In this document: positions 4,127 to 14,795 of the stretch, piece after piece
Layout of the letters: the number at the start of each line of letters is the position of its first letter
Position numbering within the stretch: the stretch's first letter is position 1
Origin: Rivularia sp. PCC 7116
GTDB taxonomy: Bacteria > Cyanobacteriota > Cyanobacteriia > Cyanobacteriales > Nostocaceae
Reading direction: 5' to 3'
NCBI RefSeq assembly: GCF_000316665.1
Contig: NC_019678.1
Span: 2,604,001-2,668,000, forward strand
Length of the DNA stretch: 64,000 nt
Notes under the pieces: model-generated
What the model was told of the DNA's origin: nothing
The model's database searches: none
What the model saw: only the letters and a program-made list of their open reading frames with translations
Position numbers and translations under genes: made by a program

Positions 4127-5953
4127 TTACCGATACCCCTGCGCTTGCAAGGAAAACAGCGTCGCATACCTTCCATTCGCTTTTAATAACTCTTCATGGG
4201 TTCCCGTCTCCAAGACTTCACCCTGCTCTATAACCACAATTTTGTCAGCCATTCGCACTGTAGAAAAACGGTGGGATATCAAAAACACCATTTTATCTTG
4301 AGTCAAATTACGAAAACGGTCAAAAATTTCGTATTCTGCTTGGGAGTCTATTGCTGATGTTGGCTCATCTAATACGAGAATATCGGCGTTTTTTCGCATA
4401 AAAGCCCGAGAAAGGGCAATTTTCTGCCATTGTCCGCCGGAAAGCTCTTGCCCTGACTTAAACCAACGTCCTAATTGAGTTGTGAAACCATCAGGCAATC
4501 TTTCGATAAAAGGTTGAGCCATTCCTTTTTCGGCAGCGATTTCCCATGCTGTTTCATCTTCCAATTTTTCCACATCACCAACACCAATATTTTCACCGAC
4601 GGTAAATTGGTAGCGAACGAAATTCTGAAAAATTACTCCAATTCTTCGTCGCAATTCATCTAAATCCCACTCTTCTAAATTCAAGCCATCTAATAAAATT
4701 CTTCCCGATTCTGGAGTATAAAGTCGGGTGAGCAATTTAATTAAAGTCGTCTTTCCCGAACCATTCTCACCAACAATTGCTAGTTTTTCACCCGGTTTCA
4801 AATGCAGCGAAATATTTTTCAAAGCTGGTTTTGTACTTCCGGGATAAGTAAAAGAAACGTTTTCAAACCGAATTCCATCTTCTGGATTTGTACCTTTGGT
4901 TGCTCTACCGTATCTTTTCGGTACTTCTTCTTCTAAGAATTCGTAAAGGTTGGAAAGATATAGGTTATCTTCGTACATTCCCCCAATAGAAGTCAAAGCA
5001 CTTGCAAAAGTAGTTTGTCCCTGACGGAATACGGTAAGATACATCGTCATATCTCCCAGAGAAATCCTACCGGCAACGGTTTCTAATACAATCCACGCAT
5101 AAGCAACGTAGAAAGTTGCAGTACTCAACAAACCTAATAAATAACTCCAAAAACCCCGCTTGATTGTCAAATCCCTATCTTCACCGTAAAGTTGATGAAA
5201 TAGGTTGCGATATCTTCCCAACAACATGTCACCAAGCTGATAGAGTTTTACTTCCTTGGCAAAATCTTCGCGAGCTACCAACGTCTCTAAATATCGCTGC
5301 TGTCGGGTTTCCGGGGCACGCCAGCGAAATAAACGAAAAGCTTGTCCCGCAAACCGAGTTTCGGCAACAAATGCAGGTATGGCGGCTAAAATCAGTATGG
5401 CTACAGCCCATGCAGAAAAGCTTATCAGCAAAGCGCCGTAGGTAAGCAGCGATAAACCACTTTGCACCAAACCAAAAGTACGATTAACTAAAGAAAGCGG
5501 ACGACTAGAAGCTTCCCGTCGCGCATTTGTCATTTTGTCGTAAAATTCGGAATCTTCAAATTGACGCAATTCCAACGTCAGCGCTTTCTCGATAATCAGT
5601 ACATTTACTCTTTGACCTAGTAATACTCTTAACAGCGACTGAGCAACGCTAAGTCCGCGCTGACTACCTGCAAGTAAAGCCACAGCAACAGCTTCTAATC
5701 CTACATACATCAAAGGAAAAGAAGTATTGAGATTATCTTGTAAAGATAAATTTCGGGTTTCAACAACAGCATCAACAATCAATTTACCGATGTAGGCAAC
5801 AGCAGCCGGTAAAAGCCCCGCCACTAAAGTTAAAACTGCCAGAATAATCGTGAGAGTGCGATTAGTAGTCCAAACTAAATTTACAGCTCGTCCGCTGTAG
5901 CGAAATACAGCGAAAGATTGGCGTAAGTTGTTACGTAATTTGCTTATCCTCAT
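4127..5953 (-). CDS. ABC exporter half-transporter (fused permease and ATPase), 608 aa
   Basis: The N-terminal ~340 residues hold about six membrane helices of an ABC type-1 exporter domain. The C-terminal ATPase has Walker A GENGSGKTT (395-403), signature LSGGQ (504-508), Walker B ILVLDEPTS (about 525-533) and the switch histidine in ISHRFST. The standard length fits a homodimeric exporter of lipid, drug or peptide type; the substrate cannot be told. It starts at ATG 5953. The gene stands alone, with the accessory island beginning about 80 bp upstream. Confidence 0.88.
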   Translation of the reverse strand: MRISKLRNNLRQSFAVFRYSGRAVNLVWTTNRTLTIILAVLTLVAGLLPAAVAYIGKLIVDAVVETRNLSLQDNLNTSFPLMYVGLEAVAVALLAGSQRGLSVAQSLLRVLLGQRVNVLIIEKALTLELRQFEDSEFYDKMTNARREASSRPLSLVNRTFGLVQSGLSLLTYGALLISFSAWAVAILILAAIPAFVAETRFAGQAFRLFRWRAPETRQQRYLETLVAREDFAKEVKLYQLGDMLLGRYRNLFHQLYGEDRDLTIKRGFWSYLLGLLSTATFYVAYAWIVLETVAGRISLGDMTMYLTVFRQGQTTFASALTSIGGMYEDNLYLSNLYEFLEEEVPKRYGRATKGTNPEDGIRFENVSFTYPGSTKPALKNISLHLKPGEKLAIVGENGSGKTTLIKLLTRLYTPESGRILLDGLNLEEWDLDELRRRIGVIFQNFVRYQFTVGENIGVGDVEKLEDETAWEIAAEKGMAQPFIERLPDGFTTQLGRWFKSGQELSGGQWQKIALSRAFMRKNADILVLDEPTSAIDSQAEYEIFDRFRNLTQDKMVFLISHRFSTVRMADKIVVIEQGEVLETGTHEELLKANGRYATLFSLQAQGYR

Positions 5954-6032
5954 TTTTCACTCTAACAATTAACATAACTCGCTAGCTATATAGTTAAGCC
6001 CGCTAGACTAACATATACCTAGCGAGTAACAA

Positions 6033-6395
6033 TTAAAATGGGATGTAATTTAGATCCACTATATTTTTCAACTGATACCAATATTTCAATTTCATTCGAT
6101 ATGTGACTTTCCCGCGTATATCCCTTTCTGAATTTGCGGTGAAAAAATTAGCAATTATCGGGTCATCCCACCTACCATAACTACTAGATAAACTCTTATC
6201 AATTTCCTCGTAAAAGCTAAGAAACTGATATAGTTTACGGTAATGCTTTTGTGGTAGATTGCTTGCGGAGAATTTTTTCCTGTAATTAACGCTTAACTCA
6301 TTGATATAAGAGGTTATGCGCGGGTTGTTCCAGTCCCAACCTAAGCTTTCTAGCTTGGAATCTACGGTATTAAAATCTATTGATGTTGGTTGCAT
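6033..6395 (-). CDS. Hypothetical protein, 120 aa
   Basis: A small, basic, aromatic-rich soluble protein (LGWDWNNPRITSYI near the N-terminus, Tyr/Trp-rich C-terminus) of no family that I know. It is read leftward just after the IS110-type recombinase, with 57 bp between them that contain a palindromic terminator, so it may be transcribed separately. It belongs to the accessory island. It begins at ATG 6395; upstream is an A-rich stretch without a clear ribosome site. Confidence 0.5.
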   Translation of the reverse strand: MQPTSIDFNTVDSKLESLGWDWNNPRITSYINELSVNYRKKFSASNLPQKHYRKLYQFLSFYEEIDKSLSSSYGRWDDPIIANFFTANSERDIRGKVTYRMKLKYWYQLKNIVDLNYIPF

Positions 6396-6426
6396 TTTTT
6401 AATTTTCACCTAAAAAAAAACTACAA

Positions 6427-6448
6427 AAAAATGGCGATCGCCATTTTT
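6427..6448 (-). terminator. Perfect 22-bp palindrome with HIP1 core
   Basis: AAAAATGGCGATCGCCATTTTT is a perfect palindrome four bases beyond the stop of the recombinase gene. The GC-rich core with an A/T-rich flank would act as a rho-independent terminator in either direction, and its centre is the cyanobacterial HIP1 site. Confidence 0.6.
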
Positions 6449-6452
6449 ACCG

Positions 6453-7637
6453 TTAACTATCACAAAGTGCTTTGACTAACTCCCGAAACAGCAATTTACC
6501 TGCTAGCGCAGCAGTTTTAGAACGTGCTAGCTGCACGGGTTTACCGCCTATTTTCATTTCATCTAAGTATTTACCGAGCTTTTGAGTAATTGTGTTTGTC
6601 CGGCGATGTCTTGGCTCAACCGCTGAAAATACCCACAGCCACCACATTTTTCTTGATAAAGAGCTTCCGGATTTAACTTTATCTTTCTTGCTATCCCCCG
6701 AATACTCTTGAGTAGGTGCTAGTCCAAGACTTTTTAAAAACCGGCGTTCGGAAAGATGTCTAGCTGTTGGCTTACCCGAAATTCTTCCTTTACGGATTTT
6801 GATAATCGGCTTATTATCTTCTAAATAACGGGTGAACGGATATATTTGAGTAATTATTAAGGCTTCTGTGCGATACCCAAAATTAAATAATTTAAAAGTT
6901 TTTCGGTATCGCACAAAGTCTTGATGAGCAATAATTTGTTTTAGTTGTTGCTCGAGGGAATATTCTTCTTTGTGAAATTCACATATCCGATGACTGTGGA
7001 GTTCTACGCTCTCTGTAATTCCAAGTCCTATTGAATCTTTATACAAGCGTTTGTATTTCGGACTTCTCCTTTCCCCGCACAACCATCCCCAAAGCAGGGG
7101 AGACAAAATAGTTTTTGATTCCGAACGAACGAATGCTACTTCTGGGAATTGCCAAGCTAAATCTTGACGGACGCGATTAATAATTGCAGTGCGGATGCGG
7201 TTTATGTGCTGTAACCTCAAAACAATTTGACGTAATTTAAAAGTTTTTGGGGAACGAATATTTATAAACTTAGTAGACTTGTCTAAATACTCAACTCCAT
7301 AAGCAGCAAGCGCGAGAGCATCAGCATCATCATCTTTGTTTGGCAATTCTAAGTGCCTTTCCCGGTAATATCGCAATTTGGCGTGATCTACTAGTCTTGT
7401 CTCAACACCTGCATTCATTAAATGGTGAATCCAAATTAAAGAGTAATTAATCCCGGTTGGCTCAAGAACCGCAATGTCAGGTTTAAATGCCAGTAAAGCT
7501 GACAAACCTTTTTTATCAGCATTTAATTTTGCAAACGGGTATTCGTAGTAAAATTCATGGATGTCATTGGGTAAACCGTGCAGCAGACAGCATGAAACTG
7601 AGGACTTGCTTACATCAAGTCCCAAAATTCTTTTCAT
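6453..7637 (-). CDS. IS110-family transposase (DEDD recombinase), 394 aa
   Basis: The N-terminal RuvC-like half carries the expected acidic residues: D8 (LGLDVSK), E59 (VLEPTG) and D103/D106 (NKDDDADALALAAYG). The C-terminal half has the Transposase_20-like stretch FLKSLGLAPTQEYSGDSKKD; the conserved serine in YSG is a candidate for the nucleophile of the family. The length is normal and the frame intact, so it may be active. IS110 elements lack inverted ends and use a structured RNA from their non-coding end for target choice. The 200-bp leader upstream of this gene is structured, while the ends of the element cannot be placed from one copy. Confidence 0.85.
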   Translation of the reverse strand: MKRILGLDVSKSSVSCCLLHGLPNDIHEFYYEYPFAKLNADKKGLSALLAFKPDIAVLEPTGINYSLIWIHHLMNAGVETRLVDHAKLRYYRERHLELPNKDDDADALALAAYGVEYLDKSTKFINIRSPKTFKLRQIVLRLQHINRIRTAIINRVRQDLAWQFPEVAFVRSESKTILSPLLWGWLCGERRSPKYKRLYKDSIGLGITESVELHSHRICEFHKEEYSLEQQLKQIIAHQDFVRYRKTFKLFNFGYRTEALIITQIYPFTRYLEDNKPIIKIRKGRISGKPTARHLSERRFLKSLGLAPTQEYSGDSKKDKVKSGSSLSRKMWWLWVFSAVEPRHRRTNTITQKLGKYLDEMKIGGKPVQLARSKTAALAGKLLFRELVKALCDS

Positions 7638-7840
7638 AGGTTGTAATCTTACGAACTAATGAAGGCCGCAGCCTAATGTACTCTCAAAGTAGAAGCTCAT
7701 GAAAAATGTAAGGCAATAAGCCTATCTGAATATCTGAGCTTTGGTGCTAGAACGGTGAAACCATCCCGCGACTGTGGGATTTACCCACAGTTTCGGTTAG
7801 TGGTTAGCTAACCTCGTCAGGCGAGTTAAATACATTAAAT
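7638..7840 (-). ncRNA. Structured leader of the IS110 recombinase, candidate bridge RNA
   Basis: This non-coding stretch lies directly upstream of the recombinase. It holds a perfect 8-bp hairpin (ACTGTGGG at 7771-7778 with CCCACAGT at 7784-7791) framed by AACC/GGTT, a 12-bp perfect palindrome GGTTAGCTAACC (7802-7813) and a small CTCG/CGAG hairpin just beyond. The position matches where IS110-group elements encode their bridge RNA. The structure is seen; the RNA function is inferred, and transcription is not shown. Confidence 0.35.
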
Positions 7841-8050
7841 TCAATCAAGAAAGTTACTGAATGTGCTTTTGTCAAAACGTAAACTACTCGTTCTTATCAC
7901 CCAACTTCTTTTTTTTTGTGCCCTACAAGGGTGAATAGTAGAAGAAGTCAGCACCTGTAAATTTTCAAGTCTTAATGACAAGTATTCTAAAAATTCAACG
8001 AATTTTTTAGCGTCGTTTGCGGTTCCTGTTATGTTTAATTTAACTTCCAC
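7841..8050 (-). CDS. Small hypothetical protein, 69 aa
   Basis: The frame begins at GTG 8050 with AAAAAAGGAC a few bases upstream, a plausible ribosome site. The first half (VKLNITGTANDAKKFVEFLEYL) looks like a folded alpha/beta segment; the second half is rich in Ser, Arg and Thr and looks less protein-like, so the 3' part may be frame-shifted or degenerate. It is the last small gene before the recombinase leader. The function is unknown. Confidence 0.4.
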   Translation of the reverse strand: MEVKLNITGTANDAKKFVEFLEYLSLRLENLQVLTSSTIHPCRAQKKRSWVIRTSSLRFDKSTFSNFLD

Positions 8051-8128
8051 GATTGTCCTTTTTTATAATCGGTAAATTTTGCCAAGCCTAGTTTTCTTCC
8101 CTTTGCTATTCTTTTTAAATCATCGCTT

Positions 8129-8392
8129 CTAATACTCAACATCTGTTAATTTCATCAATCCATCGCAGTATTCTTCAAGAGAGTCATCACTACATTTATC
8201 GAGTTCATATTGTGCCTGCTGGAAAACATTCTTTCTATAAGCATCTTTTGACATGTTTGAATTCATTAAAACATGTGCATTACCTAAAGCCATAGTGAAT
8301 GCTTTTTCTATCAAACCTAAATGCCTTTTATGAATCAAAATATAATCGCTATCGTCAGCTTTTTTGAATGCAGGCTTAGTTTTTTGATTCAT
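8129..8392 (-). CDS. Small island protein, 87 aa, paralogue of its neighbour
   Basis: Residues 13-45 (DSDYILIHKRHLGLIEKAF..ALGNAHVLM) match residues 11-43 of the upstream neighbour (DPNYVLVHKRALVAMSHCV..AIQSFAVC): the spacing is the same and YxLxHKR is shared. Its start codon (ATG 8392, with AAAGGAT upstream) lies inside the end of that gene, a 17-bp overlap that suggests translational coupling. It appears alpha-helical and soluble. I know no family or function; an origin by tandem duplication is the simplest reading. Confidence 0.6.
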   Translation of the reverse strand: MNQKTKPAFKKADDSDYILIHKRHLGLIEKAFTMALGNAHVLMNSNMSKDAYRKNVFQQAQYELDKCSDDSLEEYCDGLMKLTDVEY

Positions 8393-8669
8393 TATCGAAC
8401 ATATCCTTTAAATCCAAAATTCCTGATTTACCTTGATTTTTTATCAACTGTTCAATAACAAAATCTAATTGCTGTTGTGACAATTCATGGACATGAGAAT
8501 TAGCATAATGACTAAATTGCAGAGTAGTTTCTTGCATCTCGCTACCGCTACAAACAGCAAAGCTTTGAATAGCTAATCCCACGCAGTGAGACATTGCAAC
8601 CAATGCTCTCTTATGAACCAATACATAATTCGGGTCATTGTCTGGGATTTTGTAGGATTCTTCTTTCAT
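8376..8669 (-). CDS. Small island protein, 97 aa, paralogue of its neighbour
   Basis: This is the upstream member of the overlapping pair described for 8129-8392. It shares the YxLxHKR motif near residues 14-21, followed by a hydrophobic helix (MSHCVGLAIQSFAVC) and a C-terminal helical region (LSQQQLDFVIEQLIKNQ). It starts at ATG 8669, 4 bp after the stop of the 120-aa gene, so these genes very probably form one leftward operon. The function is unknown. Confidence 0.6.
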   Translation of the reverse strand: MKEESYKIPDNDPNYVLVHKRALVAMSHCVGLAIQSFAVCSGSEMQETTLQFSHYANSHVHELSQQQLDFVIEQLIKNQGKSGILDLKDMFDNESKN

Positions 8670-8673
8670 CTCT

Positions 8674-9036
8674 TTATATTGGGAATTCTAAATTTAATAT
8701 TGTGTCTGGATTTAAGTTGGCTTCTCTACAGTAATCAATTATCTTTTTAAGAGACTCTGCACCGCGCTTTATTTCAGCATCTAGCTGTTTTTTTTCTTCT
8801 TTTAATTCAGCAATGTCTAACTGTAACCGTGTCCTTTTATCTTCCATCTCTAAAACGTGTAGTCCTAGTTTTGAATCTACTGTAGCTTGTGCAAAATCAA
8901 ACCGTTCTAAGAAATTCTCATCTTCTTGAATTTCAAATTCTACACAACAACTTGCGTTACCTAAGCTTCTTGGCAACGTTCTTTCATATCTTATTTTTTT
9001 CCATCTAATTTCGTTCCGAATCACATCTAAATTCAT
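8674..9036 (-). CDS. Coiled-coil island protein, 120 aa
   Basis: The C-terminal half is a strong coiled-coil candidate (about residues 58-100, heptads of Leu/Ile/Val in a Lys/Glu background, LDIAELKEEKKQLDAEIKRG), followed by a short tail ending LNLEFPI. The N-terminal half has paired cysteines (NASCCVEFEI). It starts at ATG 9036 with GGAGAG upstream, and the ATG overlaps the TGA of the previous gene, a coupling arrangement. It could be a structural or adaptor protein; this is inference only. Confidence 0.6.
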   Translation of the reverse strand: MNLDVIRNEIRWKKIRYERTLPRSLGNASCCVEFEIQEDENFLERFDFAQATVDSKLGLHVLEMEDKRTRLQLDIAELKEEKKQLDAEIKRGAESLKKIIDYCREANLNPDTILNLEFPI

Positions 9037-9248
9037 TTACTCTCCTCATCCAAAGCATTAATATAATTACTGCAATGACCTAGCTTCATAGAAGCCTCTA
9101 CAAACATCGGGTAAACTTGTGCGTTGGCTTCTTTGTTTAGCGCTTCTTGCTCTCCTATGATTTTTTTAATTTCTACTAGCTTTTCTATTGCACCATGCAA
9201 TAACTCCCATACTTGCTGATAATCCCAACCTGGATCTGTATTTGACAT
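9033..9248 (-). CDS. Small island protein, about 71 aa
   Basis: A helical, soluble protein (YQQVWELLHGAIEKLVEIKKI). I place the start at ATG 9248, because AAGGAG sits five bases upstream; an in-frame GTG at 9254 would overlap that ribosome site. It overlaps the next gene by 4 bp (ATGA). It is the first or second gene of the leftward small-gene operon. No family is recognised. Confidence 0.55.
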   Translation of the reverse strand: MSNTDPGWDYQQVWELLHGAIEKLVEIKKIIGEQEALNKEANAQVYPMFVEASMKLGHCSNYINALDEESK

Positions 9249-9319
9249 AATCACTCCTTGAGTTAGACTTAACTGATTTCGTGCATAGTAAAAGGTAGAT
9301 ACACCCTGACGTAGCGTTT

Positions 9320-9526
9320 CTATACTTTAGAAGCGCTATTCTCTTTCTTTAAGTCTTCAGTTGAAAAAGCGATTTCAAGTATTGCGTTGGGTAATAACCC
9401 TTGCAAGACTTTGAAATGCCTTTCACATTCAGCGCGAGACTCTAGACGCGCTATACACATTTGATAACCGCCAGTAGATAGGCGTTTGAAAATACACCAA
9501 TTAGCTTCACTTGCAAGTTGGTTCAT
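9320..9526 (-). CDS. Small island protein, 68 aa
   Basis: A short alpha/beta-looking protein (GGYQMCIARLESRAECERHFKV) that lies first in the leftward small-gene run, next to the structured control region. Start ATG 9526 has no clear ribosome site. Cys and aromatic residues are spaced as in a small folded domain, but I recognise no family. Regulation probably comes from the control region to its right. Confidence 0.45.
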   Translation of the reverse strand: MNQLASEANWCIFKRLSTGGYQMCIARLESRAECERHFKVLQGLLPNAILEIAFSTEDLKKENSASKV

Positions 9527-9539
9527 AGTTAAAACTGTT

Positions 9540-9850
9540 TTTAAATTGTTAGGAAACGCGGGTTGTAGACAAAAACCCGCGCAAGTCGAAAAAGGATTAG
9601 TAGTGATTACAGATTTTAGTTATTTAAAAACACCTCCTCAGTTTGACGCTGCAAAAATTTGGGCTAGCTGTGGCGATTGCTAACCCGCCCTTCTAACTGT
9701 TCTCAAATAGCGCATTGGTGGGGTCTGGTAGACATAGCGCCATCAGTTAGAAGGATTATTTGATTGTTCAAAGATTCCACAAATCTTGGTTTGCGGAGTA
9801 GGTATCCCGTAGTTACTGGTGTGTCTCGCGAGTTTTAGGCGAGAGGGGAA
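9540..9850. other. Structured non-coding control region of the island
   Basis: Between divergent gene sets lie several inverted repeats. CGCGGGTT (9557-9564) pairs with AACCCGCG (9574-9581). CCTTCTAACTG (9689-9699) pairs perfectly with CAGTTAGAAGG (9744-9754), and the 44-bp loop holds two ATAGCGC copies. A CTCGC/GCGAG pair lies near 9826-9845. Such a layout fits a structured RNA, an origin or a recombination site. No convincing gene is seen here. Confidence 0.4.
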
Positions 9851-9852
9851 TT

Positions 9853-9872
9853 ATTCATTTACAAAAATGAAT
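9853..9872. promoter_or_regulatory. Inverted repeat, candidate operator
   Basis: ATTCATTT and AAATGAAT form a perfect 8-bp inverted repeat around a 4-bp centre, about 75-80 bp upstream of the RHH regulator. It lies next to the longer inverted repeat at 9884-9934. Size and symmetry suit a dimeric DNA-binding protein. Confidence 0.4.
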
Positions 9873-9883
9873 TATAGGGATAA

Positions 9884-9934
9884 TATTTCATATATAAAAA
9901 TAAAAGTCAATACCTCATTTTTATATATGAGATA
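9884..9934. promoter_or_regulatory. Long inverted repeat upstream of the RHH regulator, candidate operator
   Basis: The arms 9884-9901 and 9917-9934 match at 17 of 18 positions (inner 14 perfect: TCATATATAAAAAT and its complement), with a 15-bp spacer. The right arm ends just before the ribosome site GGAGAG (9938-9943). RHH proteins commonly bind such repeats at their own promoters, so autoregulation is the natural inference; a replication or recombination site is the alternative. Confidence 0.5.
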
Positions 9935-9951
9935 ATCGGAGAGTAAAATGA

Positions 9952-10170
9952 GTGATTTTGGTTATGGCAAAAAGAGGAAGGCCCAAGTCCGGACGAAACG
10001 CGAAGACGGTGAGTCTAACGATTTCACCGGAGGCATGGGAGATGTTCAGACTCCAAGCTATGGAGCAAGGAATAACTCGTTCGGAGTTGTTAGAGAAAAT
10101 TGCAAAAACACCGAATGTGATGAACAACCTATCAAACAAGAAACAGCTGGGGGAACTTTACGCCAGTTAG
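9952..10170 (+). CDS. Ribbon-helix-helix DNA-binding protein, probably interrupted by a frameshift
   Basis: The product carries a basic arm (KRGRPKSGRNAKT), a beta strand (VSLTIS) and two helices (PEAWEMFRLQAMEQ, TRSELLEKIAKT): the classical RHH/CopG fold. GTG 9952 lies 8 bp after GGAGAG; ATG 9964 is the alternative start. The frame stops at 10170, but the other frame continues with GGTLRQLANEVREQL and a coiled coil to 10286. Restoring one G in the G5 run at 10149-10153 would join them into one protein of about 110 aa. So this is either a mutation, a read error or programmed frameshifting. Confidence 0.65.
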   Translation: MILVMAKRGRPKSGRNAKTVSLTISPEAWEMFRLQAMEQGITRSELLEKIAKTPNVMNNLSNKKQLGELYAS

Positions 10171-10286
10171 CTAATGAAGTTAGAGAGCAACTGGCATATC
10201 ACGAGTCGCAGATTGAATTACAACGAAACCGTCTTAAAAGATTAGAAACCTTAATTCAAGAAGAAGATTTAGATAAACCGTCTTAG
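10140..10286 (+). pseudogene. Out-of-frame C-terminal coiled coil of the RHH protein
   Basis: The frame ending at TAG 10286 encodes a clean helical segment (LRQLANEVREQLAYHESQI, then QRNRLKRLETLIQ) typical of a C-terminal coiled coil. It has no start codon of its own in the sensible part. The same frame is open back to ATG 9948, but there it is only a shadow of the RHH frame. A terminator follows directly. A -1 shift near 10150 is the most economical link to the RHH domain. Confidence 0.45.
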
Positions 10287-10307
10287 TAATGTACTAGGAC
10301 GGTTTTT
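10275..10307 (+). terminator. Strong rho-independent terminator
   Basis: AAACCGTC (10275-10282) pairs with GACGGTTT (10298-10305). The stem extends inward through TAGTA/TACTA to about 14 pairs with a 3-base loop, and a T run follows. The stop codon of the coiled-coil frame lies within the stem. It closes the RHH transcript. Confidence 0.8.
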
Positions 10308-10342
10308 CATTATTCTTTTGATTTGGAACCCCAAACATAGAA

Positions 10343-10375
10343 CAAAATCCCTGCACTACCAAGTAAGGGATTTTG
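10343..10375. terminator. Hairpin, 10-bp perfect stem
   Basis: CAAAATCCCT (10343-10352) pairs perfectly with AGGGATTTTG (10366-10375) around a 13-base loop. It lies 36 bp after the previous terminator and just upstream of the 238-aa gene, so it could be a second terminator, an attenuator or a protein-binding site. Confidence 0.4.
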
Positions 10376-10418
10376 TAGGGTACCAACTTGCAATTGGCTA
10401 ATATTAACTAATAGAATT

Positions 10419-11135
10419 ATGACACAAAGTAGAAACAAATCAATAAGCCAGTGGACATATAAACATGATGAATTCTGTTTACAAAATTCAATAAGTCCTG
10501 CCGCTAAACTCCTATGGCAATGGTTGATTAAAAAAGGATACATAGGGGAATCTGAACCGGACTTAAAAGATTTTAATAAATGGGTATCTAGGAACCGTAG
10601 TAAAGGCGCTTATTGCAGAAATACTTTAAAAGATGCTTTCAATAAACTCGTAGAATCTAGAGCTATCAACCTTGTCAAGAAATACACTTGGAATATTGTC
10701 AAAATAGTAACCAGACCAATTGAGTATCTGAAACCGAAAAAAAAGTTACAGAAGCGAAATATTTTTGACAGTTTAGATAGGTCAAAGCAGCGAAATTACG
10801 ACAACGGGTTATCACAACAACAACATATAAGAATATTAGACAATCAAATTTTATTTTCTCAGTACGGTATCCACTTTGACGACACAGAAAAAGAAGTACT
10901 TGACCGTCCTAAAAATGAAATACTCCTTGCTATTGTCTGCTATCAACTGGCGGACGAAACAAGAATTACTCAGTGTACTGGCGTTGATGAAAACAACGAA
11001 CCGTTAGAGATTTTAGAAGAGTTAAAAGCTGCTGAGGTTTTTAATTTACCCGTCTCAAATGGAATCTACAAAGGTGCTATTTACGCAATTTCAGAGCAAA
11101 GCTCAGTACTTAAATTCACCGAATATTCAAACTAG
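10419..11135 (+). CDS. Island protein, 238 aa, possible winged-helix/replication-type DNA-binding protein
   Basis: The N-terminal ~100 residues (SPAAKLLWQWLIKKGY, CRNTLKDAFNKLVESRAI) resemble the helix-turn-helix layout of plasmid or phage replication and regulatory proteins, followed by a very basic linker (LKPKKKLQKRN). The C-terminal ~90 residues are acidic (HFDDTEKEVLDRPKN). The start ATG has no good ribosome site, and a hairpin lies upstream. The next gene starts 5 bp after its stop. I infer a DNA-binding role, perhaps replication of the element, without being able to name a family. Confidence 0.5.
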   Translation: MTQSRNKSISQWTYKHDEFCLQNSISPAAKLLWQWLIKKGYIGESEPDLKDFNKWVSRNRSKGAYCRNTLKDAFNKLVESRAINLVKKYTWNIVKIVTRPIEYLKPKKKLQKRNIFDSLDRSKQRNYDNGLSQQQHIRILDNQILFSQYGIHFDDTEKEVLDRPKNEILLAIVCYQLADETRITQCTGVDENNEPLEILEELKAAEVFNLPVSNGIYKGAIYAISEQSSVLKFTEYSN

Positions 11136-11140
11136 AATCG

Positions 11141-11416
11141 ATGACTTTTCAAGACTTTCTTGTTGTATTTGCGGAAGTATTACTACCGTTAATACTTGCT
11201 TTTGTAGCGCGAAATACTGAAATTACAAAATCTAGCCTGACAGAGATTAAGGCACTAAAAAAACAAATCGAGAGCGATAAACACGAACAAACCCAATGGA
11301 TTATTGAAGTCAGAGAATCGCTTAAGCGAAATGACTTTATGACCGAACGTAATTCAACTTTAATTGCGAAGCTAGTTGACCACTCTTTTTTGGGGAATAA
11401 AAATGAAAATCAGTAG
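11141..11416 (+). CDS. Small single-pass membrane protein with coiled coil, 91 aa
   Basis: One N-terminal membrane helix (FLVVFAEVLLPLILAFVA) is followed by a charged helical segment (LTEIKALKKQIESDK) suited to coiled-coil pairing. The size and topology recall phage holin/spanin-like or element-borne accessory membrane proteins, but no family is clear. It begins 5 bp after the 238-aa gene and overlaps the next gene by 14 bp, so the three are one operon. Confidence 0.5.
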   Translation: MTFQDFLVVFAEVLLPLILAFVARNTEITKSSLTEIKALKKQIESDKHEQTQWIIEVRESLKRNDFMTERNSTLIAKLVDHSFLGNKNENQ

Positions 11417-11594
11417 TATTATTGAATGGCTTAAAATTTTGGTTGCAACTAGCGAGCAAGTTGCCGAAATTATTGAAGCGTCTAGCATTCCACCTGAAGA
11501 GCAGAATGCTGTACGCAACAGCGTTTCTACTGCACTAGAAAAGCTTAATTACGCAAACAGTAAAGTTGATGTTGAGCCTACATGCAATAGCTAA
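11403..11594 (+). CDS. Small helical protein, 63 aa
   Basis: I set the start at ATG 11403 (MKISSIIEWLK), with GGGG about 8 bp upstream, rather than the longer frame from 11376. The product is an amphipathic helical protein (WLKILVATSEQVAEIIEA, then PPEEQNAVRNSVSTALEKL). It overlaps the end of the membrane protein gene. The function is unknown; co-translation with the membrane protein suggests a partner. Confidence 0.45.
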   Translation: MKISSIIEWLKILVATSEQVAEIIEASSIPPEEQNAVRNSVSTALEKLNYANSKVDVEPTCNS

Positions 11595-11641
11595 ATAGTT
11601 ATCTAACCATCAACACTAAATTTATTATCTTCCTCATGCTG

Positions 11642-11670
11642 CTACCGGTACGCCTCCCGGTAGTTTTCTT
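11642..11670 (+). terminator. Rho-independent terminator of the rightward island operon
   Basis: CTACCGG (11642-11648) pairs with CCGGTAG (11657-11663), followed by TTTTCTT. It lies 48 bp after the last gene of the operon. Confidence 0.75.
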
Positions 11671-11756
11671 GGTTGGAATGCCACAGTACATTTATATTCT
11701 AAGCTGCCGCTGGCAAAAAACATGCGTATCTTCCGAGCATCTATAAGTAATTTAAA

Positions 11757-11787
11757 AACCCGCACGTTTTAAGATGCGGGTTTTTTT
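11757..11787 (+). terminator. Second rho-independent terminator
   Basis: AACCCGCA (11757-11764) pairs with TGCGGGTT (11775-11782), followed by a run of T. With the terminator at 11642 it forms a double stop and may mark the right boundary of the island's transcription. Confidence 0.75.
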
Positions 11788-12149
11788 GCGTTTTTTTTGG
11801 GGTATGCTGCGGTATAACAATGAAGTGTTTGTATTACTCATGAACACAATCATAGCTAGTTTTAGTATTTTGTCAACTTTGAGCCTTATTAGTTCTGAAT
11901 ATAGCGCGAAATTAGTGGCGATCGCCGAGGAAAGTGTATAAAGTATTAATATATTTATTCAGTTACGGTAATCAAATTACTTTTATGATTGCGTAGACAA
12001 AAACGCTATATAGCAATGCAAGGCGCAAAATACTGAAATAGCAAAAATATTTTTACATAGATACCATGATAGATTAAGTACTTTTTCTGAATCTGAATCA
12101 ATCAAACAAAAAAATAATTTAATTTAAATCTATAAATCTACCACAATAA
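11788..12149. other. AT-rich intergenic region with a possible 33-aa ORF
   Basis: Apart from one HIP1 site (11917-11926), the only item is a tiny frame at 11840-11941 (+), which would encode a hydrophobic then acidic peptide (IIASFSILSTLSLISSE). It has no ribosome site, so I do not call it a gene. The rest is AT-rich and featureless. Confidence 0.3.
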
Positions 12150-12443
12150 ATGAAATCATCACCTATCGTAATTTGTACTAAAAGCCTTAATAATATTAAA
12201 TATAATAGCGTTATCAACTGGACTCTGCTTGAAGATTTTAATGTTGTATATGAATCACGTTGTCCAGAAAAAAATATTTATCACAAACAAGAAATGTGTT
12301 TTGACAATTTGCCAATACAGATAAAAATAATGATAGCTAAGCAAGCAATAAAGAGTCCTTTTCTAAAAACTTTAGAATCGAAAGAACAATTAAAATTAGT
12401 GCTGTTTGCTGTCAAGGAATCGACTATCAACTCATGGTTATAG
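12150..12443 (+). CDS. Small hypothetical protein, 97 aa, paralogue of 12760-13056
   Basis: This protein and the next one share a common architecture: (P)V/I-V-x-C-x-K near the start, LNNIKYNSVINWTLLEDFNV, a CPEK turn, then NLP-x-x-I-x-IMIAKQAIK near residues 60-72. The second half is helical (MIAKQAIKSPFLKTLESKEQ). No family is recognised. The spacing of 316 bp and equal orientation point to an old tandem duplication. Confidence 0.55.
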   Translation: MKSSPIVICTKSLNNIKYNSVINWTLLEDFNVVYESRCPEKNIYHKQEMCFDNLPIQIKIMIAKQAIKSPFLKTLESKEQLKLVLFAVKESTINSWL

Positions 12444-12759
12444 CTATAAGTAAAATCCTATGCTATTAGCTACAAAAATAGTCTAATTAACTATAAAAAT
12501 AAATGTTAGCAGCAGTAAATTACTTACTAAATTTGCAATCAATACTTTATAGGCTGTAGTGAAATATGACTAAAAATAAGCATCGGGCTTAATTAATGTG
12601 CTTATACTTATCTTGATGAAAATAACACGAATCTAGCCGCAATTGCCAAAAAATAACAATAGAGGATTTACATAAAAATTTTACAAGTCACAATATTGCC
12701 ACCCTTTAGATTGTAATATATTAATTAGTTATCATTAAATTATATATTCTCCTAGCTCT
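12444..12759. other. AT-rich spacer between the two paralogues
   Basis: I see no gene, hairpin or clear repeat here; it is AT-rich and probably holds the promoter of the second paralogue. Confidence 0.5.
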
Positions 12760-13056
12760 ATGAAATTACCATTAAACATTAAATCATTACCTGTTGTCAC
12801 TTGTGCTAAAGACCTAACGAATCTCAAGTATGGAACGATTAGTAAATGGATGCTGTATGAAAATTTTACAGTTAACTATGAATGGTCTTGTCCTGAGAAA
12901 AAGAAATCTCGCAGGCAAGAAATTGATTTTGAAAATTTACCACTAGAAATACAAATTATGATAGCGAAACAAGCTATTAAAAATCCTACTTTGAAGAATT
13001 TGGAATCCGATAAACAGTTGTTTTTAGTTCATCTTGCTGTCTTAAATAATTCATAA
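12760..13056 (+). CDS. Small hypothetical protein, 98 aa, paralogue of 12150-12443
   Basis: This is the second copy of the pair, with the same order of motifs (VVTCAKDLTNLKYGTISKW, CPEKK, ENLPLEIQIMIAKQAIK). The match at IMIAKQAIK is exact, while the surrounding residues have diverged, so both copies have probably stayed under selection. It starts at ATG 12760. The function is unknown. Confidence 0.55.
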   Translation: MKLPLNIKSLPVVTCAKDLTNLKYGTISKWMLYENFTVNYEWSCPEKKKSRRQEIDFENLPLEIQIMIAKQAIKNPTLKNLESDKQLFLVHLAVLNNS

Positions 13057-13569: not shown

Positions 13570-14795
13570 CTAGGCAACCCTAGACATAAACTGAGCTTGT
13601 TTATACAGGTCGTGCGCCCCACGATTCCTGATGTTAATTGCGGCATTTTGGTCACGGCAAATAGAAGTATGACAAACCGGGCAATTATGCATTCTTTGAG
13701 ACAAAGGTTTCTTTACTTTGTGACCACAATTTGAACACTCTTGAGAAGTACCATGAGGCAATACTTTTATTACCACCAAACCAGCATTTTCGGCTTTGTT
13801 TGTAAGTATTGAAATGAATTGTCCCCAACCTGCGTCATGAATACTTTTAGCAAGTCTAGTCCTAGCCAGACCTTTTATATTTAACTTTTCAACCGCTACT
13901 ACATCATAATTTTTAAGTAGTCGATTAGCTATTTTAAAATGAAAATCTTTCCTTGTATCAGCAATCTTTTTATGCTGTTTACTTAATTTTCGTATAGCTT
14001 TTTTACGTCTATTAGAACCTTTTTTGCGGCGAGAAACGCGCTTTTGAGCTTTACATAATTTACGTTCTGCTTTACGTAAATATTTTGGTGCTGCAACTCT
14101 TTCGTTATTAGACGTAACAATAAAGTCTATTAATCCGGCATCAATCCCAACAATATTATCCCGGTTAAAGTCAGGTTTAATTGTTGGTACTGTCTTATCA
14201 TCAAGGCTCAAAGTTACATAATAACCATCCGCTTTCTTCGTGACGGATACAGTTTTTATTGTGAAACCGTCTGGAATAGGACGATGTACGATTACTTTTA
14301 CATCACCAATTTTTGAAAGCTTTATCACTTTATTTGAGAAATGATGTTGCTTGAACTGCTGATAAGTAAAAGTCTTATATTGACCTTCGCCCTTAAATCT
14401 CGGCCGTCCCGATTTTTTACCGCGAAGTCTGCCGGACAGAGTACTCTTTCCGGCGAGCTTCGCGTTAGCATCACCTTTCAACCATCTATCAAAAGCTTTT
14501 TCAACTCTTTTCGGAACTTCCTGTAATACTTGGGAATGAATATCTTTGTACCAAGGATGTTCTTTTTAAGTTGTGTTAAAGATGCTTTTTGATTGTAATA
14601 ATTTGGTTGCTCTATTAATTCAGGCAGGTAGCAAACCAAGGAACATCTATCAATTGAACAACGGTTCTGTTCATACCAGTTAAATCTTTGAGCCAACAAA
14701 AAATTGTATTGATAACGCAACATATTTAATGTATTGTCAATTTTTTCTGCTTGTTGATTTGTTGGCTTAATTTTGAATTGGTAAGAAGTTTTCAT
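13570..14795 (-). pseudogene. tnpB: TnpB (IS605 OrfB) with a one-base frameshift
   Basis: The N-terminal part (14795 to about 14563, MKTSYQFKIKPTNQQ) and the C-terminal part (to 13570) are in different frames. The true continuation ([32 protein letters not shown]) is open back to the A5 run at 14563-14567, so one lost A breaks the gene. The C-terminal part has an intact RuvC triad (D in GIDAGL, E in AVEKLNI, D in [14 protein letters not shown]) and a four-cysteine zinc ribbon (CSNCGHK, CPVC). Without the shift it would be about 400 aa, an RNA-guided nuclease. A TTG-started short product from 14481 is unlikely to be functional. Confidence 0.75.

What the first reader, a model, noticed from the sequence alone, without database searches (positions are those of the whole stretch)
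6033..11594. Accessory island with an IS110 recombinase, small-gene operon and structured control region
Seen: an IS110 DEDD recombinase, a leftward run of short unknown genes (several overlapping), a non-coding region with near-perfect inverted repeats, a divergent RHH regulator, a 238-aa probable DNA-binding protein and a small membrane protein with strong terminators. Known: this organisation (divergent regulator, operator, DNA-binding protein, small genes, recombinase) resembles plasmid or satellite elements. Inference: an integrated element of an undescribed type, mobilised by the IS110-type recombinase or merely carrying it.
Basis: partly seen in the sequence, partly recalled or inferred. 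Interest (0 to 1): 0.75.

Follow-up and report, generated by a model that had tools for sequence, protein, structure and literature searches.

The report
RNA-guided integrating element in cyanobacteria
A 5.9-kb piece of foreign DNA sits at a site that is empty in sister genomes, and the small RNA encoded beside its recombinase spells out both the site it entered and its own ends, making it one of a widespread, apparently undescribed family of multi-gene mobile elements in cyanobacteria that choose their insertion site with a guide RNA.

Summary
The island is real. Its ends are exact: 5956-11892 (5,937 bp), not up to 13060; the site runs uninterrupted in all 7 other genomes held for the genus. 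The IS110 recombinase (6453-7637, minus) is most likely the integrase, and the RNA just upstream (about 7822-7648, minus) reads as a bridge RNA: its target loop matches the empty site on both sides (0 of 3,000 shuffles as good) and its donor loop matches the element's ends, the left one only partly. The same holds in relatives: 24 loci gathered by recombinase alone match their own flank at 4.42 of 6 guide bases versus 1.80 for others' flanks (p<1e-5; 5 of 24 fail), and unusual donor guides helped find two unseen element ends. Measured relatives span 7.8-16 kb; 25 of 25 near-full-length recombinase loci with at least 9 kb upstream carry at least one module gene. The window copy looks like an internal-deletion derivative. 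Bridge RNAs and IS110-carrying phages are known; a multi-gene family with cargo between tip and bridge RNA I did not find in print (six searches of one library). Phage-like or plasmid-like is open. Mobility today is not shown.

The parts
5956..11892 (.). Whole integrated element, 5,937 bp; ends ambiguous by the 3 bases TTC shared by both junctions (5956-5958 and 11893-11895)
   Evidence: G005, G003, G006 have both flanks joined; G004, G001, G002, G007 run on from the left flank into about 20 bases like the right flank
5956..5972 (-). RE tip (recombinase orientation ...TTAGAGTGAA)
   Evidence: Junction; AGAGTGAA tip near the IS110 stop in other elements
11876..11895 (-). LE tip ((GAA)CTAATAAGGCTC), variant of the usual (GAA)TCCCCA
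5977..6027 (.). Inverted repeat just inside RE (15-nt arms, 93%)
   Evidence: role unknown, possibly a terminator
6033..6395 (-). 120-aa gene of unknown function downstream of the recombinase
   Evidence: No relative in the libraries and loci compared
6453..7637 (-). IS110-family (NCBIfam IS110_2) recombinase, proposed integrase
   Evidence: D8, E59, D103, D106, S313 invariant
7648..7822 (-). Bridge RNA, about 175 nt (ends set from the alignment, not from transcripts)
   Evidence: z -3.85 for 7640-7840; 25-sequence covariation
7725..7733 (-). Left target guide, ATATTCAGA
   Evidence: 9-nt match to the empty-site target
7701..7708 (-). Right target guide, CATTTTTC
   Evidence: 8-nt complement to the other half of the target
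7680..7685 (-). Left donor guide, GAGAGT; the next bases (ACA) differ from the family (GAA)
   Evidence: Matches AGAGT of the RE tip
7653..7666 (-). Right donor guide, GCCTT-C-ATTAGTTC
   Evidence: Pairs with LE GAACTAAT/AAGGC with one bulged base
8129..9526 (-). Small-gene operon: 8129-8392 and 8376-8669 (paralogues, 25% identity, E 5e-4), 8674-9036, 9033-9254, 9320-9526
   Evidence: All but 8129-8392 have relatives among the loci; functions unknown
9527..9951 (.). Divergent control region with inverted repeats, likely RHH operator
   Evidence: role inferred
9952..10170 (+). Ribbon-helix-helix regulator (C1)
   Evidence: Relatives beside p10419 relatives
10419..11135 (+). 238-aa protein: C0 winged-helix N-part (to about residue 178) joined to the C-terminus of a different gene
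11141..11416 (+). Small membrane plus coiled-coil protein (by eye)
   Evidence: Position parallels a small membrane gene after the matching gene in L040 and L038
11403..11594 (+). Small last gene before LE (ORF opens at TTG 11376, ATG at 11403)
   Evidence: position parallels C46 of L040/L038; no sequence match found

Best explanation
Positions 5956-11892 are an integrative mobile element inserted by its own IS110-family recombinase, guided by its own bridge RNA. Inferred cycle: the element leaves as a circle that joins RE to LE; the recombinase binds the bridge RNA; the donor loop pairs with the RE-LE junction and the target loop with the chromosomal site; strands are exchanged at a 2-base core, most likely AA in recombinase orientation, leaving no long duplication. 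Shown by computation: exact empty site, guide-target and guide-donor complementarity in this and other elements, conserved RNA structure, regular linkage of recombinase and cargo genes. Inferred: circular intermediate, catalysis, RHH repression of the divergent promoters, p10419 as a DNA-binding replication or control protein. This copy is probably an internal-deletion derivative of a larger element and may be weakly mobile or immobile, because its bridge RNA has changed at core-binding positions of the left target and left donor guides.
For: Site uninterrupted in 7 of 7 other genomes of the genus. Window guides: combined run 17; 0 of 3,000 dinucleotide shuffles reach it, best 15. Own versus other flanks in 16 elements tabulated by hand: left 6.09 of 7 vs 2.45 (n=11), right 5.13 of 7 vs 2.07 (n=15), no permutation of 100,000 as high. 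Second set of 24: 4.42 of 6 vs 1.80, no permutation of 100,000 as high; 17 of 24 match at 5 or more. Variant donor guides fit ends then found for L112 and L102. Structure: 97.1% of cells paired, 25 pairs with two-sided change, covariation 0.364 vs 0.164 shuffled and at most 0.100 slid. Tandem copies in G037 (period 15,393 bp) meet at a junction reading RE-LE. At least one module gene in 25 of 25 near-full-length loci with at least 9 kb upstream, 19 of 19 outside the discovery contigs. The site of the L040 element has no element in G000, G005 and G004, though the junction bases there have diverged.
Against: No reads, transcripts or circular form were examined. Five of 24 loci match poorly (L102 3, L113 2, L128 1, L142 1, L111 0 of 6; L102 and L111 match after a 1-base shift); kinship among the 24 was not corrected for. 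One search is not blind: 8 of 11 LE ends were located with the left guide, three RE ends (L033, L035, L037) through the right guide, and the L035/L037 left-guide anchors were set after the target was seen; right guides of L023 (2), L029 and L035 (4 of 7) are poor. Window left guides carry core-binding changes. The recombinase profile finds no solved IS110 structure by sequence. Most larger relatives also carry a small tyrosine recombinase (C3) that might act in their mobility. Of 4 partial recombinase loci with at least 9 kb upstream, 2 (L150, L152) show no module gene.
Confidence: 0.9

Rival explanations
1. The IS110 unit is an ordinary insertion sequence that landed in an unrelated small-gene island.
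For: IS110 elements are common (recalled); some C0-RHH-C7 modules exist without IS110 nearby (L019, L031, L034 in G004); two partial recombinase loci show no module gene (L150, L152).
Against: The ends that match the guides enclose the whole 5.9 kb, and the empty site has the same ends; at least one module gene in 25 of 25 loci with enough flank.
Confidence: 0.04
2. The tyrosine recombinase of larger relatives is the real integrase and IS110 is a passenger or second system.
For: C3, a Phage_integrase-like protein of about 193 aa, in 23 of 25 loci.
Against: Junctions follow bridge RNA guides element by element; the window has no C3 but a precise insertion; C3 relatives also sit on plasmids pHT582-1 and -2, where no IS110 was found in the stretches held.
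Confidence: 0.06
3. The window copy is a fossil: it entered by this route but can no longer move.
For: Left guides read GAT and GAGAGTACA where the family has GAA and GAGAGTGAA; structural module missing; p10419 is a fusion.
Against: Recombinase ORF is full length with invariant residues; both right guides fit; absent from all 7 relatives held, so probably not old in the genus.
Confidence: 0.4
4. The 5.9-kb form is an original minimal element, not a deletion derivative; larger ones gained cargo.
For: Parts (C7, RHH, C0) also exist as small modules; the two small genes before LE match by position only.
Against: p10419 C-terminus (51 aa, 43%, E 1e-8) matches a gene that lies next to C14 near LE in L040 and in L038, and the gene order after it is alike.
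Confidence: 0.3

Closest known systems
IS621 and other IS110-group insertion sequences with bridge RNA (PMC11208160, passages seen)
   Same: DEDD recombinase; structured RNA upstream of the gene with target and donor loops, left guides matching and right guides complementary; short core; no long duplication
   Different: There the bridge RNA lies in the non-coding LE (IS621 RE-LE 298 bp, RNA about 177 nt) and its promoter is rebuilt at the RE-LE junction of the circle; here 4.1 kb (window) to about 14 kb (L040) of mostly coding DNA lie between LE tip and RNA, so the promoter must be internal (inference)
IS1111 group
   Same: IS110 family, RNA-guided
   Different: Bridge RNA in RE, downstream of the gene, per PMC11208160; here upstream
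Neisseria Nf phage and Thermus filamentous phages Zuza8, Zuza27, phiOH16 (PMC11437467, one passage seen)
   Same: Multi-gene element with an IS110 gene at one end, thought to use it for integration
   Different: No filamentous-phage protein recognised here; no phage or IMG/VR match for the proteins tried; no bridge RNA is mentioned in that passage
Cyanobacterial plasmids pHT582-2 (15.6 kb) and pHT582-1
   Same: C10 relatives at 38% and 36% identity; profiles also find C3, C4, C6 on both and C14 on pHT582-1
   Different: Circular plasmids with Par genes; no IS110 found in the stretches held (all of pHT582-2, 33,490 of 37,028 bases of pHT582-1)

Membership tests
IS110 family recombinase | DEDD catalytic residues and C-terminal serine | tested here: met
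   Invariant D8, E59, D103, D106, S313. Which residues are catalytic is a recalled assignment
IS110 family, bridge RNA system | Structured RNA in the element | tested here: met
IS110 family, bridge RNA system | Target loop guides match own insertion site | tested here: met
   5 of 24 poor
IS110 family, bridge RNA system | Donor loop guides match own ends | tested here: met
   left donor guide of the window only partial; no permutation test was run on donors
IS110 family, bridge RNA system | RNA is transcribed, bound by recombinase, and recombination follows | not testable with these tools
   No RNA or protein assay
Simple IS110-group insertion sequence | Only the recombinase gene between non-coding ends, bridge RNA within LE near the tip | tested here: not met
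   LE tip is 4.1 kb from the RNA, with other genes inside
IS1111 group | Bridge RNA downstream of the gene; long subterminal inverted repeats | tested here: not met
   RNA upstream; repeats shared between the two ends were not sought
Filamentous phage with IS110 | Zot-like ATPase, coat and attachment proteins | tested here: inconclusive
   C20 P-loop ATPase in 11 of 25 loci but only generic or weak hits; no phage or viral-contig relative found for the proteins tried
Tailed prophage or satellite | Terminase, portal, capsid | tested here: inconclusive
   Only weak hits: terminase phrog_2666 E 0.016 on the C20 P-loop, Tail_completion_gp17 E 0.046 below cutoff; not every gene was scanned
Conjugative element | Relaxase and coupling protein | tested here: inconclusive
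   None among the proteins scanned; plasmid relatives typed non-mobilizable; not every gene was scanned

The most novel reading that the evidence does not exclude
A new class of infectious, temperate, phage-like elements of cyanobacteria whose integrase is RNA-guided, with swappable modules: a bridge RNA plus recombinase cassette sets the site, an RHH repressor region sets immunity or compatibility, and variable fibre-like proteins set recognition. Two copies in one genome (G013, L024 and L025) are mostly 97-100% identical over long stretches but diverge at these places.
Probability: 0.3. Interest if true: 0.92.

Novelty: new variant of a known kind. Interest (0 to 1): 0.78.

Why it matters
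Bridge RNAs were described in insertion sequences. Here RNA guidance appears to be the integration system of a multi-gene element family found in many cyanobacterial genomes, with the RNA far from the element tip and different target guides in most copies. Tens of natural guide-site sets, and three donor-guide variants, give direct material to test the pairing rules, the core, and how guides change as elements move. Those cargo proteins that I searched match no phage in the collections used, so a group of cyanobacterial mobile elements may be missing from catalogues.

Tried and rejected
Phage and viral origin by sequence: p10419, C20 and C10 in 'phages' and C20, C3 and the IS110 alignment in viral contigs gave nothing. 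Window DNA in plasmids: no match. Single-protein genome scan with p10419: none. Rfam: 4 hits, all below gathering score. PADLOC: two weak hits (0.0025, 0.0035) over short stretches, not taken. PDB profile searches of C20, C10 and IS110: mostly P-loop proteins, none, none. Structure of p10419: winged helix, best PDB E 0.08, so no class assigned. Structure of C6 (pLDDT 89.6): no match at E<=0.001 in PDB or BFVD. A core of GA was considered; AA fits both the window and L040 and is preferred, not proven. Weakness found on checking: the C0 profile used includes two proteins (L038, L040) that share only the C-terminus, and one C0 hit (L145, E 6e-6, other strand) is doubtful, so the C0 count may be one too high.
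Full report
Where it is. The window is G000:C1:2604001-2668000 of an 8.73-Mb genome. The left flank (an ABC transporter gene starting at 5953) is found in all 8 genomes held for the genus, its own included. In G005 the left match ends at 5958 and the right match resumes at 11893; G003 and G006 behave alike. In G004, G001, G002 and G007 the left flank runs on into about 20 bases like the right flank and then diverges. The element is therefore 5,937 bp, flanked by a shared TTC. The 97/98-aa genes at 12150-13056 are outside.

What relatives show. p10419 has relatives in 26 of 100 related genomes, its own included. Of 34 loci around such relatives, the window included, 17 also carry the IS110 recombinase; many of the loci are cut by contig ends. 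To avoid the bias of starting from p10419, I scanned the species genomes with the IS110 alignment alone (two peptide patterns, so close relatives only): 70 loci, all cyanobacteria by their titles. I kept 55 by hand as near full length; 25 of these have at least 9 kb upstream. All 25 have at least one module gene, 23 the tyrosine recombinase C3, 19 a C0 hit, 19 an RHH hit; outside the discovery contigs the figures are 19, 17, 13 and 14 of 19. L134 has RHH only; L107 and L109 are tandem copies of one contig. The 15 set aside are mostly partial: of 4 with at least 9 kb upstream, L147 and L153 have module genes, L150 and L152 none.

The RNA. Upstream of the recombinase gene lies a conserved RNA in 10 loci of the window's group and 7 of a more distant group. 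Of 37 loci where both ends of the RNA could be set, I gave 24 plus the window to the alignment: six helices, 97.1% of cells paired, 25 pairs with changes on both sides, covariation 0.364 against 0.164 shuffled and at most 0.100 when slid. The window RNA folds with z -3.85 and none of 200 shuffles as stable.

Guides and sites. In recombinase orientation the empty site reads CGCGCTATATTCAGAAAAATG; the RNA holds ATATTCAGA and CATTTTTC, in that order, almost wholly within the two sides of one internal loop. This target comes from another genome, so it is independent of the guides. In 16 elements set out by hand, left guides match own sites at 6.09 of 7 (n=11), right guides at 5.13 of 7 (n=15); 12 of 15 right guides match at 5 or more, L029 and L035 at 4, L023 at 2. 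Eight of those 11 left ends were located with the guide itself, so one search is the fairer test: fixed patterns on 70 loci; 36 had no target-loop pattern, 4 no RE motif, 6 rows came from discovery contigs and were dropped; the other 24 gave 4.42 of 6 against 1.80, and none of 100,000 permutations reached it. Seventeen of 24 match at 5 or 6; two at 4; five fail (L102, L113, L128, L142, L111), two of which match after a one-base shift.

Donor side. The 10 other elements with a known LE begin (GAA)TCCCC, or AAATCCCC in L040, and the usual right donor guide is GGG-T-GATTC, which pairs with one bulged base. The window begins (GAA)CTAATAAGGC and has GCCTT-C-ATTAGTTC, which pairs with one bulge. L112 and L102 have guides ending GGTTC, predicting ends that begin GAACC. 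A pattern of L112's left guide plus that prediction has 47 hits in 12.4 Mb, one of them 14.9 kb upstream of its recombinase on the right strand, reading GAACCCAAAG; a scan upstream of L102 with several alternatives gave GAACCCCAAAG behind its left guide. Tandem copies in G037 meet at AGAGTGAATCCCC, the predicted donor junction.

The window copy as a derivative. Residues to about 178 of p10419 belong to the C0 family; residues from about 184 to 236 match instead the end of a different gene next to C14, near LE in L040, and in L038 of the same genome (43% over 51 aa, E 1e-8 for L038; 40% over 52 aa, E 8e-6 for L040). After it, as in L040 and L038, come a small membrane gene (by eye) and a short last gene; these two match by position, not by sequence. 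An internal deletion that fused the two genes explains this; it is inference. The window RNA also departs from the family at core-binding bases of both left guides, so current activity is doubtful.

What the family is. The measured larger elements (10, all in the window's family) span 7.8 to 16.05 kb (coordinates; G037 period). Beyond that family, module genes stand beside the recombinase in, for example, Chroococcus (L145) and Myxosarcina (L144) records. Genes include an amidase (1.5e-30), the tyrosine recombinase (1.5e-16), a P-loop ATPase, a long coiled-coil or collagen-like protein (by eye) and unknown proteins. C3, C4, C6 and C10 relatives sit on plasmids pHT582-1 and -2, without IS110 in the stretches held; others lie in the window's own genome near a VapE/DUF3854 protein. 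Two elements in G013 are mostly 97-100% identical over long stretches, with some windows at 89-95%, but fall to about 0.5-0.7 at the upstream part of the bridge RNA region, the RHH region, the C6/C39 genes and the C4 gene onward, and to 0.76-0.96 across the recombinase; their target guides differ. That is what modules for site, immunity and recognition would look like, but no virion gene is identified.

Literature. Seen as passages: PMC11208160, PMC11437467, PMC12045711; the rest only as listings. Searches listed no paper that I recognised as describing cargo-bearing, bridge-RNA-integrated elements of cyanobacteria; the library lacks preprints and most subscription journals, so absence is weak evidence.

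Noticed in passing
L024 and L025 (genome G013): Two elements in one genome, mostly 97-100% identical over long stretches, diverge sharply at the RHH region, the bridge RNA region, C6/C39 and C4 genes, and moderately at the recombinase: a mosaic suggesting immunity and recognition modules.
   Followed up: partly
L036/L041, G037:C10: Two tandem copies, period 15,393 bp, joined at an exact RE-LE junction.
   Followed up: partly
L038 (G000:C1:2281000-2300999), same genome as the window: Structural module relatives (C6, C4, C27, C14, amidase) with no IS110 found in the 20 kb, near a 908-aa VapE/DUF3854 protein; a 415-aa gene there weakly resembles C20 (3.9e-6).
   Followed up: partly
L031, L034, L019 (G004): Small C7-RHH-C0 modules without IS110 found nearby; L031 and L034 share 91-92% identity at two places. 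Possibly non-autonomous forms or remnants.
   Followed up: no
window 11876-11849, minus strand: Best promoter match of the region (11 of 12) just inside LE, reading in recombinase direction, where a simple IS110 would start its bridge RNA; a GC hairpin follows (by eye). The number of promoter hits is not above chance.
   Followed up: no
window 12150-12443 and 12760-13056: Two 97/98-aa genes outside the element, paralogues by eye, no Pfam match.
   Followed up: no
window 13570-14795: IS605-type TnpB (OrfB_IS605 1.1e-24 for 13570-14481); the ORF 14478-14795 before it looks like its separated N-terminal part (by eye).
   Followed up: no
L078 about 1412 and 1560: Repeated GTTTCAATCCCTAATAGGGATTTTGATGAATT-like units near an element end, resembling a CRISPR repeat (recalled likeness, not tested).
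   Followed up: no
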